Origin: Thermoleophilaceae bacterium
Lineage (GTDB): Bacteria > Actinomycetota > Thermoleophilia > Solirubrobacterales > Thermoleophilaceae
Assembly: GCA_030448005.1 (NCBI GenBank)
Contig: JAUJNT010000006.1
Coordinates: 126,698-177,536, forward strand
DNA: 50,839 nucleotides
Direction of reading: 5' to 3'
Part shown: in pieces, positions 38,061 through 43,040 of the stretch
Layout: every line of letters starts with the position of its first letter
Numbering within the stretch: the first letter of the stretch is position 1
Position numbers and translations under genes: made by a program
The notes under the pieces: model-generated
The model's input: the letters and a program-made list of their open reading frames with translations, nothing else
The model's database searches: none
Told to the model about the DNA's origin: nothing

Positions 38061-38170
38061 CGAACGACACCATAGAGCTGCCACTGACGTCGAGGAGAGG
38101 CAGCGCGGGTCAGCTCTGGCGAGAGTTGGTGCGCGAGCACCATCAGCCCGGCAAGCGCGAGAATGGCCGG

Positions 38171-39403
38171 GTGGCCCACGGCCCGGTCATCGCGCTGATC
38201 GACGGGGAGCACCATCCGCCGGCGGTTCGAGACGCGCTCGATCGCCTGCACGCCGCGCGGGGGGTCGCGGGGGTGGTGTTCTGCGGAGGAGAGGAGAAGG
38301 TGTCCCCGCGCGCGCTCGGGGACGCGCCCGTCCACTACGGCCATGAGGTCCTGAGCGGCATGGCGCCCGAGGACGGGATCCGTGAGCTGGTGACGGGCAC
38401 GGGCGCGGCCGGCGCTCGCGCGGTGGTGGACCTGGCCGACGAGCCGGTGCTCGATCCCATCGCCCGGCTCCGCCTGGCCGCGCTGACCCTTCACCTGGGT
38501 CTCTCCTACGAGGCGCCGGGCATGCGGCTGAGTCCGCCGCCATATGCGTCGGTGCCCTTCGACGGGCCCACCCTCGCCGTCATAGGCACCGGGAAGCGCA
38601 GCGGAAAGACCGCGGTGGCGGGACACTGGGCCGGGCTGTTGCGCGCCGGGGGCGCCGATCCGGCGATCGTGTGCATGGGTCGGGGCGGACCGGCTGAGCC
38701 CCAGGTCGCGCATGCCGGCATTGGGGTCGAGGAGCTGATCGCGATCTCCGACCGCGGCGGCCATGCCGCATCCGACTACCTCGAGGGCGCAGCCCTGGCG
38801 GGGGTCACGACGGTTGGGTGCCGTCGAGTGGGAGGCGGGCTCGCGGGGGAGCCCGGCCAGTCGAACATGGTCGAGGCCACGGCGGTGGCCGCCGGAATCG
38901 CCTCGGGCGCGCTCATCCTCGAGGGCTCGGGATCCTGCATCCCGCCGGTGGCGGCCGACCGGACGGTCTGCGTGATCGGCCACCAGTCGATCGACGGGCT
39001 CGACCGCTATCGCGTTCTGCGGGCGGACCTCTGTCTGACCTGGCACACGGTTGACTCTCCGTGTCCCACCGTCCGCTTCGAGCTGAGGCCCGAGCCAGCC
39101 GAGCCGCTGCCGGAGAACGCTCGGGTGGCCGTCTTCACGACCGGAGCAGAACGTTGCGAGGGCGTCGAGCCGGTGGTATCGAGCCGCAACCTGTCGCGCC
39201 GGGCACCCCTCTGCCAGGATCTCGACCGGGCCGCGGCTGAGGGCTGCGACGTCTATCTCACCGAGCTGAAGGCAGCGGCGGTGGACACCGTGGTTCCCCG
39301 GGCGCGACGCGAGGGCGCGCGGGTCATCTTCCTCCGCAACCGGCCCGTGGGACTCGACGGGGACCTCGACGCCGAGCTGGTCAGGCTGTGGCGCGATGCC
39401 TGA
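38171..39403 (+). CDS. Cyclic 2,3-diphosphoglycerate synthetase
   Basis: 410 residues from GTG 38171, the first start that fits the conserved opening AHGPVIALIDGEHHPPAVRD. The P-loop GTGKRSGKTAVAGHWA is near residue 139, followed by the family's IVCMGRGGPAEPQV and LEGSGSCIPPVAADRTVCV segments. The pattern is that of archaeal cyclic 2,3-diphosphoglycerate synthetase (Methanothermus type), which uses ATP to close 2,3-diphosphoglycerate into its cyclic trianhydride. The next gene, overlapping by eight bases, encodes the enzyme for the preceding step, which strongly supports the assignment. Confidence 0.85.
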   Translation: MAHGPVIALIDGEHHPPAVRDALDRLHAARGVAGVVFCGGEEKVSPRALGDAPVHYGHEVLSGMAPEDGIRELVTGTGAAGARAVVDLADEPVLDPIARLRLAALTLHLGLSYEAPGMRLSPPPYASVPFDGPTLAVIGTGKRSGKTAVAGHWAGLLRAGGADPAIVCMGRGGPAEPQVAHAGIGVEELIAISDRGGHAASDYLEGAALAGVTTVGCRRVGGGLAGEPGQSNMVEATAVAAGIASGALILEGSGSCIPPVAADRTVCVIGHQSIDGLDRYRVLRADLCLTWHTVDSPCPTVRFELRPEPAEPLPENARVAVFTTGAERCEGVEPVVSSRNLSRRAPLCQDLDRAAAEGCDVYLTELKAAAVDTVVPRARREGARVIFLRNRPVGLDGDLDAELVRLWRDA

Positions 39404-40244
39404 GACGATCGTGCTTCACCGCGGCTACGGCCTTCCTTACTCGAAGGGGCTGATGGCCCAGGCTCTGTCGGCCACCGGACTGACGCCCCAGCGGGCCTTC
39501 GATCTCGCGCGGCAGGTGGAGCGCCGGTTGGGTGAGAGGGGCACCGATACGATCGACCTGGCCTCGCTGCGTTCGCTGGCGGAGGAAGTGCTCCTGGCCC
39601 AGGAGGGCGAGGACGCCGTGCGCCGCTACCGCCACTGGCACCGGCTCGACCGGCTGGATCGCCCCCTGATCGTGATGCTGGGCGGCGCGGCCGGAGTGGG
39701 AAAGTCCACCCTCGCCACGATGCTGGCTCACCGGCTTGGCATCACGCGGGTGATCGCCACGGACGTCATCCGCCAGGTGCTGCGGGCCTTCTTCACCCCC
39801 GAGGCGATGCCGACGGTCCACCACTCCGCCTTCGAGGTGGACATCGGCGGGTTTGGCGAGCAGGCCGAGCACGTGGGCACCGGCGTGTCGGCGATCGTCG
39901 AACGGGCGTGCGCGGAGGGAACCCCCGTGGTGGTGGAGGGAGTTCACGTGGTGCCCGGAGCGCTCCCCGACGAGCTGCGAGGCCAGTGCGTGGCGGTCGA
40001 GGCGCTGCTCGTGGTACAGGACGAGGGCCTTCACCGCGGCCACTTCTCGCTGCGCGGCGCGGACCGTCCGGCGGAGCGCTACCACGCGCGCTTTGGCGAG
40101 ATCCGGGAGCTGCAGGAGCACCTGGCCATCGGGGCGCGGGCCGCCGGCACCCCGGTGATCGACAACGTGAAGGTGGAGGACACGCTCGGCCTGCTGATGG
40201 CGCGGGTGCTGGACGCGGTGGGAAGCGTCGGGGAGCGTCGGTGA
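39396..40244 (+). CDS. 2-phosphoglycerate kinase
   Basis: 282 residues, ATG inside the last codons of the synthetase gene. The N-terminal ~80 residues (GLPYSKGLMAQALSATGLTP, AFDLARQVERRLGERG) resemble the ATP-cone-like regulatory part of archaeal 2-phosphoglycerate kinase. The P-loop LGGAAGVGKSTLATMLA is at residues 95-111, then TDVIRQVLRAFFTPEAMP and VEGVHVVPG. It would phosphorylate 2-phosphoglycerate to 2,3-diphosphoglycerate with ATP, feeding the upstream cyclase. Together they form a two-gene cDPG pathway in the cytosol. Confidence 0.88.
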   Translation: MPETIVLHRGYGLPYSKGLMAQALSATGLTPQRAFDLARQVERRLGERGTDTIDLASLRSLAEEVLLAQEGEDAVRRYRHWHRLDRLDRPLIVMLGGAAGVGKSTLATMLAHRLGITRVIATDVIRQVLRAFFTPEAMPTVHHSAFEVDIGGFGEQAEHVGTGVSAIVERACAEGTPVVVEGVHVVPGALPDELRGQCVAVEALLVVQDEGLHRGHFSLRGADRPAERYHARFGEIRELQEHLAIGARAAGTPVIDNVKVEDTLGLLMARVLDAVGSVGERR

Positions 40245-40330
40245 TCCCCCACCTGTGGCGATTCCGCCGCCGCGCCCGGCAGGCTCTAGCCTTTCCCACT
40301 CGCTATCCACCCGAAGGAGCCTCAACCACC

Positions 40331-41473
40331 GTGTCAGTCCTCCAACGCCGCGAGCTCGAAGACAGCCCACTCGCCGACCTCCACGCCATCGCCTCGGAGC
40401 TTGGTATCGAGGGCTACCGCGCGCTGCGACGCGAGGACCTGGTGGCGGCCATCCTCTCGGCCCAGGGCGGCGAGGAGCAGGAAGCGGAGCCCGTGGACAT
40501 CGACGCGGGGGTAGAGGAGGGAGGCCCCGACGGAGCACCGGCGCTCTCGCCCGACCCGGAAGAGGTTGCCCCCGCCGAGCACGAGCCCGAGCTGGAGCCG
40601 TTGGCCGCCGCTCCGGAGGGGGAAGGGCCCGATGAGGTGGCCCAAGGCGAGACGGCCACGGGAACCCTCGACATCCTGGCGAACGGCAGCGGGTTCATCC
40701 GCGTGGGCGCCGCGGGCCAGTCAAACGACGACGTGTACGTGTCTCCGGCCCAGATCCGCCGCTGCGAGCTGCGCGCGGGCGACGAGGTGAGCGGTCCCGT
40801 GCGTCCGGCGCGGCGAAGCGAGCGCCATCCCTCGCTCGTGAGGGTGTCCAGCGTGAACGGTGGGGATGCGGAGCCGCCGGAGGAGCGCCCGGACTTCACC
40901 GACCTCACCCCGGTGCATCCCACGGAGCGCCTCCATGCACCTCTGGCGCTCGACGCCCTGCCGATCGGCAAGGGCTCGCGTGTGGCCGTTGCGGGCGTGC
41001 CGGGCGCCGGAGCCACGCGCCTCCTGCGCGCGATCGCGCGCACGATCGCCGACGGCGGTGACGACATCCTGCTGACGGTCGTGCTCGTGGGGGCACGCCC
41101 CGAGGAGGTCACCGAATGGGAGCGCGAGGAAGGGGTCGCCGTGGCCGGCGGCTCCTTCGATCGCTCGCTCGAGGCCCAGACCCAGGCCGCGGAGCTGGCG
41201 ATCGAGCGTGCCAAGCGCGCCGTCGAGCGCGGACGCGACGCGGTCGTGGTGATCGACTCGCTCGAGACGCTTCCCCCCGGTCCCGCCCGCCGCCTCTTCG
41301 GCGCCGCGCGCAAGGTCGAGGAGGGTGGCTCGCTCACGGTGGTCGCAGCGGTGGGCAGCTCGCCGGAGCCGCTGCGCCAGGCGAGCACCCGCGTCAGGCT
41401 CGACGGCGCCGCGGACGAGCCCACCGTGATCCCGGCGCTGTCGGGCACGCAGCGGGCCGACCTCCTCGCTTGA
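40331..41473 (+). CDS. Rho-like protein lacking catalytic ATPase residues
   Basis: 380 residues from GTG with AAGGAG upstream. Residues 11-45 are a Rho_N (SAP-like) helical domain, 46-110 an acidic insert, and 111-177 a cold-shock-type RNA-binding domain (GTLDILANGSGFIRV, DDVYVSPAQIRRCELRAGDE). The ATPase domain (182-380) is shortened. The Walker A lysine is Ala228 (GVPGAGAT), the DERPEE catalytic Glu is replaced (VGARPEEV), and the region of the arginine finger and the Q/R loops is missing or changed; the Walker B Asp (VVVIDS) remains. RNA binding without ATP-driven translocation is inferred. A true Rho is expected elsewhere. It is coupled to the next gene by TTGA. Confidence 0.85.
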   Translation: MSVLQRRELEDSPLADLHAIASELGIEGYRALRREDLVAAILSAQGGEEQEAEPVDIDAGVEEGGPDGAPALSPDPEEVAPAEHEPELEPLAAAPEGEGPDEVAQGETATGTLDILANGSGFIRVGAAGQSNDDVYVSPAQIRRCELRAGDEVSGPVRPARRSERHPSLVRVSSVNGGDAEPPEERPDFTDLTPVHPTERLHAPLALDALPIGKGSRVAVAGVPGAGATRLLRAIARTIADGGDDILLTVVLVGARPEEVTEWEREEGVAVAGGSFDRSLEAQTQAAELAIERAKRAVERGRDAVVVIDSLETLPPGPARRLFGAARKVEEGGSLTVVAAVGSSPEPLRQASTRVRLDGAADEPTVIPALSGTQRADLLA

Positions 41474-42183
41474 CCGAGCCGCGCGGCCCGACCAGCCCCG
41501 ACGAGGAGCTGCTCGAGGCCGAGACGCTCACGATCCTCTCAACGCTCGACGACGCCACCCGCGTCGAGCGCATCACGGGGGAGCTCGAAGACGGCTTCCG
41601 CGCGCTGGCGGGTGTCGGGAAGGCCGTCTCCTTCTTCGGGTCGGCCCGAACCGGGGCCGACGACCCTTTCCATGCACAGGCCCGGGACCTGGCAAGGCGG
41701 CTGGGCGAGGAGGGCTTCGCGATCGTGACCGGCGGCGGGCCGGGCATCATGCATGCGGCCAACCAGGGCGCCCGGGACGCCGGCGTACTGTCGATCGGCC
41801 TGGGGATCGACCTCCCACACGAGCAGGCGATGAACGACTCGGTGGACCTCCCTCTCGAGTTCCACTACTTCTTCACGAGAAAGGTCATGTTCGTGCGCTA
41901 CGCGAGCGCGTTCGTCGTCTTTCCCGGCGGCTTCGGCACGCTCGACGAGCTCTTCGAGGCGGCCACGCTGCGCCAGACCGAGAAGATCCGCCACTTCCCG
42001 ATCGTGCTCTTCGGGAGCGCCTACTGGGGAGGGCTGGTGGAGTGGCTCCGCGACCCGATGCTCGCCGAGGGGAAGATCTCGCCAGCCGATGTCGAGATGC
42101 TCGAGGTAACCGACGACCCGGACCGCGTGCTCGCCGTGGTGCGAGCGGTCGAGCACCGCCGCCCGCGAAGCGGCCGGGCGTAG
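41470..42183 (+). CDS. LOG-family nucleoside 5'-monophosphate phosphoribohydrolase (TIGR00730)
   Basis: 237 residues from TTG overlapping the Rho-like stop. Rossmann-like lysine-decarboxylase-like fold with AVSFFGSARTGADDP near residue 55, VTGGGPGIMHAANQGARDAG near 85 and the family signature VVFPGGFGTLDELFEA near 152. The RK of FTRKVMFVRYASAF precedes it. Members split nucleotide monophosphates (for example cytokinin riboside phosphates or AMP) into base and ribose phosphate. The link to a Rho-like gene is unexplained. Confidence 0.9.
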   Translation: MTEPRGPTSPDEELLEAETLTILSTLDDATRVERITGELEDGFRALAGVGKAVSFFGSARTGADDPFHAQARDLARRLGEEGFAIVTGGGPGIMHAANQGARDAGVLSIGLGIDLPHEQAMNDSVDLPLEFHYFFTRKVMFVRYASAFVVFPGGFGTLDELFEAATLRQTEKIRHFPIVLFGSAYWGGLVEWLRDPMLAEGKISPADVEMLEVTDDPDRVLAVVRAVEHRRPRSGRA

Positions 42184-42454: not shown

Positions 42455-42470
42455 CAGACTCCTAGCGGCG
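42446..42470. terminator. Bidirectional hairpin containing both stop codons
   Basis: CGCCGCTAG and CTAGCGGCG form a perfect 9-bp stem with a 7-base loop. The TAG in the left arm is the stop of the plus-strand gene, and the CTA in the right arm is the stop of the minus-strand gene. The symmetry makes a compact bidirectional terminator, although no U-tract is present. Confidence 0.6.
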
Positions 42471-42923
42471 GTAGGCCACGCGCTTCCAGGACGGCTCGGG
42501 TGAGAGCTCGATCAGCTCGTGGTCACGGTCGGGCTGGGCGTAGCCGAAGGTGGCGGTCTCCTCGTCGAATACCACCTCTAGCTCACCCTCCTTCACGCGC
42601 TGGTCGAGCCATGCGCCGCGGAACACGAGCCGGCGCAGCCAGTGTACGAGCGAGCGCTCCGAGGGGCCATGCAGGTCCCCCCAGCGATCGACGATGTGCT
42701 CGCCAAGGGATGAGTGGGCGTCGGTGACCTCGCCGTTCACCGCCAGGTTCACGAGATCCTCCCGCTCCTCGTCTCCGAGCAGGCCGCCCACGAAGCCGAG
42801 CTTCACGGCCGCCTGCTCGATGCGCTCGGTGAAGTCGCGCTCATTGAAGGTGAAGCGAAGTTCGCCGTACTCGAGTACGTAGTCGGCTCCAGATTCGTAG
42901 TTTCCGCGGGTTGTGCTGTCCAT
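42462..42923 (-). CDS. Hypothetical protein
   Basis: 153 residues from ATG 42923. Mixed alpha/beta sequence (DYVLEYGELRFTFNERDFTE, FVGGLLGDEEREDLVNLAVN, SLVHWLRRLVFRGAWLDQRV) with acidic character and aromatic strands. No signal peptide or membrane segment. I do not recognise the family; it looks like a well-conserved cytosolic protein. It converges on the small membrane protein. Confidence 0.65.
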   Translation of the reverse strand: MDSTTRGNYESGADYVLEYGELRFTFNERDFTERIEQAAVKLGFVGGLLGDEEREDLVNLAVNGEVTDAHSSLGEHIVDRWGDLHGPSERSLVHWLRRLVFRGAWLDQRVKEGELEVVFDEETATFGYAQPDRDHELIELSPEPSWKRVAYRR

Positions 42924-43040
42924 GAATGGCAAGCGACCCGGGTTGGGAGGGACTCCCGAGCGAGCGCGTCGGCATCCTAGCCCCGATCCCTTCCTCCGCG
43001 GACGCTTTGCAACGGGTCTTGCAGGGCGTAGGATCAGCTC

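What the first reader, a model, noticed from the sequence alone, without database searches (positions are those of the whole stretch)
40331..41473. Rho-like pseudoenzyme: RNA-binding parts kept, ATPase catalytic residues lost
Rho_N and the cold-shock domain are well preserved, yet the Walker A lysine (GAGAT for GAGKT), the catalytic Glu (VGARPEE for IDERPEE) and the arginine-finger / Q-loop / R-loop region are changed or deleted. The frame is long, clean and coupled to a LOG-family gene, so it is not random decay. It could be a regulator that antagonises or titrates true Rho, or an RNA-binding protein with a new role.
Basis: partly seen in the sequence, partly recalled or inferred. Interest (0 to 1): 0.75.

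Follow-up and report, generated by a model that had tools for sequence, protein, structure and literature searches.

The report
Motor-dead Rho across a bacterial order
In a whole order of actinobacteria the only copy of the transcription-stopping motor Rho has lost its motor parts but kept its RNA-gripping parts, so these bacteria appear to live without Rho-dependent termination while keeping its remains as a likely RNA-binding protein.

Summary
Window 40331-41473 (+) encodes a 380-aa protein with Rho_N, a disordered linker, the Rho RNA-binding domain and a RecA-like domain. It lacks the Walker A lysine, catalytic Glu, Q-loop, R-loop, Arg finger and everything beyond about E. coli residue 372.

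The idea that it antagonises a true Rho fails: there is no true Rho. This is the only Rho-type gene in its genome. None of 232 genomes of the order reaches the Rho cut-off. All 56 Rho genes I extracted, from four families, have lost the secondary RNA site. It is the inherited rho: the cobB-like/2-PGK/rho neighbourhood is shared with sister families that keep a canonical Rho. Four further families of the class showed no Rho at all.

The gene is under purifying selection in the RNA-binding domain and in the dead ATPase. AlphaFold predicts an intact Rho fold. One relative keeps only Rho_N and the RNA-binding domain.

Best reading: an order-wide Rho pseudoenzyme, kept as an ATP-independent RNA-binding protein, in bacteria without Rho-dependent termination. 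RNA binding and function are inferred, not shown. I found no report of it in the papers searched.

The parts
40331..41473 (+). degenerate rho gene (380 aa, GTG start, TGA stop)
   Evidence: orthologues in the order
40313..40319 (+). GAAGGAG, Shine-Dalgarno-like sequence upstream of the GTG
   Evidence: read from sequence
40352..40465 (+). Rho_N domain (aa 8-45)
   Evidence: PF07498 48.1 bits; pLDDT mostly about 97
40466..40648 (+). acidic, mostly low-confidence linker (aa 46-106)
   Evidence: pLDDT 43-77 over most of it
40658..40870 (+). Rho RNA-binding (cold-shock/OB) domain, primary RNA site (aa 110-180)
   Evidence: PF07497 81.7 bits; core and basic extended PBS residues mostly kept
40994..41017 (+). 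former Walker A, GVPGAGAT (K184 is A)
41087..41119 (+). VGARPEEVTEW: catalytic Glu 211 is A, Arg valve R212 and PEE kept
41255..41257 (+). Walker B Asp (D265 equivalent), kept
41270..41290 (+). junction where the Q-loop is deleted
41339..41380 (+). region where the R-loop and following segment are shortened
39396..40244 (+). 2-phosphoglycerate kinase-like gene, conserved upstream neighbour of rho in several families of the class
38126..39403 (+). gene labelled cobB-like in my scripts (no Pfam match), second conserved upstream neighbour of rho
41470..42183 (+). LOG-family (TIGR00730) gene; possible TTG start overlaps the rho stop

Best explanation
This is the inherited rho gene of an order of class Thermoleophilia, turned into a pseudoenzyme. 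The ring motor was dismantled in place: the secondary RNA site (Q- and R-loops) and the Arg finger went in the common ancestor or early, then the Walker A Lys, the catalytic Glu and the C-terminal domain were lost in different combinations. What is kept is the RNA-binding front end (Rho_N and OB domain, with a slightly altered primary site) on a compact RecA scaffold that cannot hydrolyse ATP in the Rho manner or thread RNA. Most likely it works as an ATP-independent RNA-binding protein on exposed, pyrimidine-containing nascent or untranslated RNA, possibly near RNA polymerase, because in canonical Rho the N-terminal domains are also what contact RNAP, NusA and NusG. The organisms therefore have no canonical Rho-dependent termination. 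Shown by computation: sole copy, orthology, losses, kept residues, selection, fold. Inferred: loss of ATPase activity, RNA binding, polymerase association and cellular role.
For: Sole Rho in its genome. 0 of 232 order genomes over the Rho cut-off, 39 of 39 high-quality relatives carry exactly one Rho_RNA_bind match. Shared synteny cobB-like/2-PGK/rho with canonical-Rho sister families. Tree: the degenerate sequences from three families (f1, f2, f3) form one clade (0.998) beside the class's canonical Rhos. Q-loop positions absent in 56 of 56; R366 retained in none; PBS F64, R66, D78, Y80, E108 kept in nearly all of 51 sequences of three families. Purifying selection, window gene versus L035: RNA-binding domain pN/pS 0.14 (p=2e-9), ATPase relic 0.20 (p=5e-14). 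Model with mean pLDDT 89, Z 32.5 and rmsd 1.6 over 272 residues to M. tuberculosis Rho. A relative (L032) encodes only Rho_N plus the OB domain, with no ATPase remnant found. Rho NTD contacts to RNAP/NusA/NusG: PMC11018626.
Against: No RNA-binding, ATPase or expression data. F62 and often Y110 of the primary site are changed, and family f4 has lost most RNA contacts yet keeps the gene, with Rho_N its most constrained part. A few genera of the order have no detectable gene, so it is not indispensable. Constraint is weaker than on canonical Rho in the same class (pN/pS about 0.00-0.08). I could not test whether it forms rings.
Confidence: 0.68

Rival explanations
1. A decaying relic on its way to loss, with only residual fold constraint and no selected RNA function.
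For: Sister families have lost rho completely; order genera g94/g95 mostly lack it; catalytic motifs differ between families; constraint is weaker than on canonical Rho.
Against: About 180 of 232 genomes keep it as an open frame; both the RNA-binding domain and the ATPase relic are under significant purifying selection in all close pairs tested, including the window gene; the changes at the primary site are shared across families (F89 to C in 51 of 51) rather than random.
Confidence: 0.17
2. It still helps stop or pause RNA polymerase without a motor, by binding the elongation complex and nascent RNA (translocation-independent inactivation).
For: Rho NTD surfaces that contact RNAP/NusA/NusG coincide with the extended PBS (PMC11018626), whose basic residues are kept; NusG is present in all 22 genomes tested.
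Against: Known Rho termination uses ATP; ring closure and the SBS cannot form as in Rho; no direct evidence. NusG is equally present in genomes without any Rho.
Confidence: 0.13
3. A regulator that antagonises or forms mixed hexamers with a true Rho.
For: Dead-motor architecture.
Against: No canonical Rho in this genome or in any of 232 order genomes.
Confidence: 0.02

Closest known systems
Transcription termination factor Rho (TIGR00767 / NF006886)
   Same: Same gene by synteny and tree; Rho_N, OB RNA-binding domain and RecA fold; primary-site residues largely kept; Walker B Asp and Arg valve kept.
   Different: Walker A Lys, catalytic Glu, Q-loop, R-loop, Arg finger and residues beyond about E. 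coli 372 are lost; scores under half the TIGR00767 cut-off.
M. tuberculosis Rho (PDB 7oqh)
   Same: Best structural match (Z 32.5, rmsd 1.6 over 272 residues); both actinobacterial with a long N-terminal insertion.
   Different: MtbRho keeps its catalytic residues and is an ATP-dependent motor (PMC4499133, PMC8828861).
Rho-lacking bacteria (Cyanobacteria, Mollicutes; from my own knowledge)
   Same: No Rho motor.
   Different: Here an edited Rho is kept order-wide instead of being absent.
Pseudoenzymes such as iRhoms (PMC3149277, abstract)
   Same: Conserved member of an enzyme family lacking key catalytic residues.
   Different: iRhoms are an unrelated family that inhibits signalling by active rhomboids; here no active family member remains in the genome.

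Membership tests
Transcription termination factor Rho (functional equivalog) | score over curated cut-off (TIGR00767, 509 bits) | tested here: not met
   217 bits; 0 of 232 order genomes
Transcription termination factor Rho (functional equivalog) | Walker A Lys and catalytic Glu | tested here: not met
   K184 to A, E211 to A
Transcription termination factor Rho (functional equivalog) | Walker B Asp | tested here: met
   D265 kept
Transcription termination factor Rho (functional equivalog) | secondary RNA site: Q-loop and R-loop | tested here: not met
   deleted in the window gene; Q-loop columns absent in 56 of 56
Transcription termination factor Rho (functional equivalog) | Arg finger R366 | tested here: not met
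Transcription termination factor Rho (functional equivalog) | primary RNA site residues in the OB domain | tested here: met
   F64, R66, D78, Y80, E108 and basic extended site kept; F62 to S, Y110 to H, F89 to C changed, so met with alterations
Rho gene lineage (orthology, not activity) | shared synteny and tree position with canonical rho of the class | tested here: met
Rho gene lineage (orthology, not activity) | Rho fold | tested here: met
   (predicted model)
Transcription termination factor Rho (functional equivalog) | hexameric ring, RNA-dependent ATPase, termination activity | not testable with these tools
   monomer prediction only; needs bench work

The most novel reading that the evidence does not exclude
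An ATP-independent Rho that rides RNA polymerase and nascent RNA and controls elongation or termination without a motor, fixed across an order that has lost canonical Rho-dependent termination.
Probability: 0.2. Interest if true: 0.9.

Novelty: new variant of a known kind. Interest (0 to 1): 0.74.

Why it matters
Rho is essential in some actinobacteria such as M. tuberculosis (PMC5379054, PMC8828861), and its catalytic residues are described as highly conserved in divergent Rho factors (PMC8828861). Here one class contains three states side by side: motor intact, motor dismantled but RNA-binding part kept under selection, and gene gone. That makes it directly testable how a lineage escapes Rho-dependent termination, what Rho's front end does without its motor, and whether these bacteria, which should not respond to bicyclomycin through Rho, control antisense transcription and R-loops in another way.

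Tried and rejected
1. Terminator usage as a test of Rho loss: 40-400 kb from each of eight genomes, crude gene calls, hairpin plus T-tract and folding energy at gene ends. No consistent difference between Rho states; samples small, G+C differs. Inconclusive.
2. NusG KOW comparison: my extraction failed; only NusG presence (22 of 22) is used.
3. Titration of a true Rho: rejected, no true Rho.
4. Assembly gap hiding a canonical Rho: rejected, 0 of 232 genomes.
5. Horizontal gain or paralogue: rejected by synteny and tree.
6. Pseudogene: disfavoured by selection tests, though the counting method (NG86-type) is crude at high G+C.
8. Error margin: of the 195 genomes with a Rho-model match, about 13 weak ones look like ATP synthase hits, hence 'about 180'.

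Full report
What is there. Window 40331-41473 (+) is an open gene of 380 codons with a GTG start and an upstream GAAGGAG. It reads Rho_N (aa 8-45), a low-confidence acidic linker, the Rho RNA-binding domain (aa 110-180) and a RecA-like domain. The full Rho models score it at 217 bits against cut-offs of 509 and 315, because the motor parts are missing: K184 to A, E211 to A, Q-loop and R-loop deleted, R353 deleted, R366 to Q, and nothing aligned beyond E. coli residue 372. Walker B Asp and the Arg valve remain.

No true Rho. Its own genome (96% complete) has a single Rho_RNA_bind match, this gene; other hits of the Rho models are weak ones over the ATPase region, the pattern expected of F1-type ATPases. 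In the order, 0 of 232 genomes reach the Rho cut-off and about 180 carry a degenerate copy. Among 39 high-quality relatives every one has exactly one Rho_RNA_bind match. Named contigs place the lineage in Thermoleophilia (Thermoleophilaceae and Solirubrobacterales MAGs, taxonomy).

Three states in one class. In a survey of 150 genomes the canonical Rho is over the cut-off in 37, all in families f6, f8 and f9. Families f5, f7, f10 and f11 showed none: there were 0 Rho_RNA_bind matches in the 44 Rho-negative genomes re-searched, a set that also included a few from f9 and f6. In a phylum survey 173 of 197 genomes are over the cut-off, and most exceptions belong to this class. The rpoB tree gives the order as one clade (100), next to the Rho-less families with moderate support, which allows one early loss of dependence followed by deletion in one branch and retention of a motorless protein in the other; this ordering is inference.

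It is the inherited rho. The order cobB-like, 2-PGK, (glpX-like), rho is shared by canonical-Rho families and by pseudo-Rho loci including the window. Rho-less f7 loci keep cobB-like and 2-PGK, with a glpX-like frame next in the one examined (L157) and no rho match. The glpX and cobB-like names are mine from reading the sequence, not from a model search. The Rho tree, which included families f1, f2 and f3, groups their degenerate sequences (0.998) beside the class's canonical ones, with f3 branching first.

How the motor was lost. In 56 extracted sequences the Q-loop positions are absent in all and R366 is retained in none. Family f3 mostly keeps the catalytic Glu and the C-terminal domain but has Arg for the Walker A Lys; f2 keeps a Walker A Lys in 11 of 13 but lost the Glu; f1, the window's family, lost both; f4 lost both and most RNA contacts too. 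So different families lost different catalytic residues, but none keeps a complete set.

What is kept. F64, R66, D78, Y80, Q85, R87, R88, R102, R105 and E108 are kept or conservatively changed in nearly all of the 51 sequences of f1-f3; F62, S84 and F89 changed in a consistent way within families. These positions form the core and extended primary RNA site (core from established knowledge of Rho; extended site from PMC11018626). Close pairs show significant purifying selection in both the RNA-binding domain and the dead ATPase; for the window gene against L035 pN/pS is 0.14 and 0.20. Canonical pairs are far more constrained (0.00-0.08). The AlphaFold model is confident (mean pLDDT 89.3) and matches M. 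tuberculosis Rho with Z 32.5, rmsd 1.6 over 272 residues; an f3 model is also confident (91.1). In one relative (L032) the gene encodes only Rho_N and the RNA-binding domain.

Mechanism. Without SBS, Arg finger or ATPase residues it should not translocate. The best-supported function is ATP-independent RNA binding by the primary site, perhaps near RNAP, since the Rho N-terminal domains contact RNAP, NusA and NusG. Sole copy, orthology, residue losses, selection and fold rest on computed results; RNA binding, polymerase contact and the cellular role are inferred. The antagonist idea is contradicted because no active Rho exists to antagonise.

Limits. Selection tests use simple counting. The terminator comparison was inconclusive. 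The literature check covers open-licence papers only.

Noticed in passing
L158:9741-10598 (+): In a Rho-less family (f11) the gene at rho's syntenic place is a Rho_N-like segment (23.5 bits, just under Pfam's 24.9) followed by an enoyl-CoA hydratase domain: a possible fusion remnant of rho.
   Followed up: partly
L032 (G055, family f3): Naturally truncated rho encoding only Rho_N and the RNA-binding domain, in the middle of a contig, with no ATPase remnant found downstream.
   Followed up: partly
window 42462-42935 (-): Convergent gene just downstream, 56-78% identical across all pseudo-Rho loci checked (L107-L117) but not found at the canonical-Rho loci; no Pfam match.
   Followed up: no
whole-class samples, L161-L240: Sampled genomes with canonical Rho are 60-66% G+C, those with degenerate or no Rho 70-76%; eight genomes only.
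   Followed up: no
L065-L069 (family f4): RNA contacts of the OB domain are largely lost while Rho_N is about 91% identical within the family and strongly constrained, suggesting a role for Rho_N alone.
   Followed up: partly
order genera g94 and g95: Most genomes of these genera show no Rho-model match at 1e-14, including one listed as 100% complete, although that same genome also gave no rpoB match, so its completeness is doubtful.
   Followed up: no
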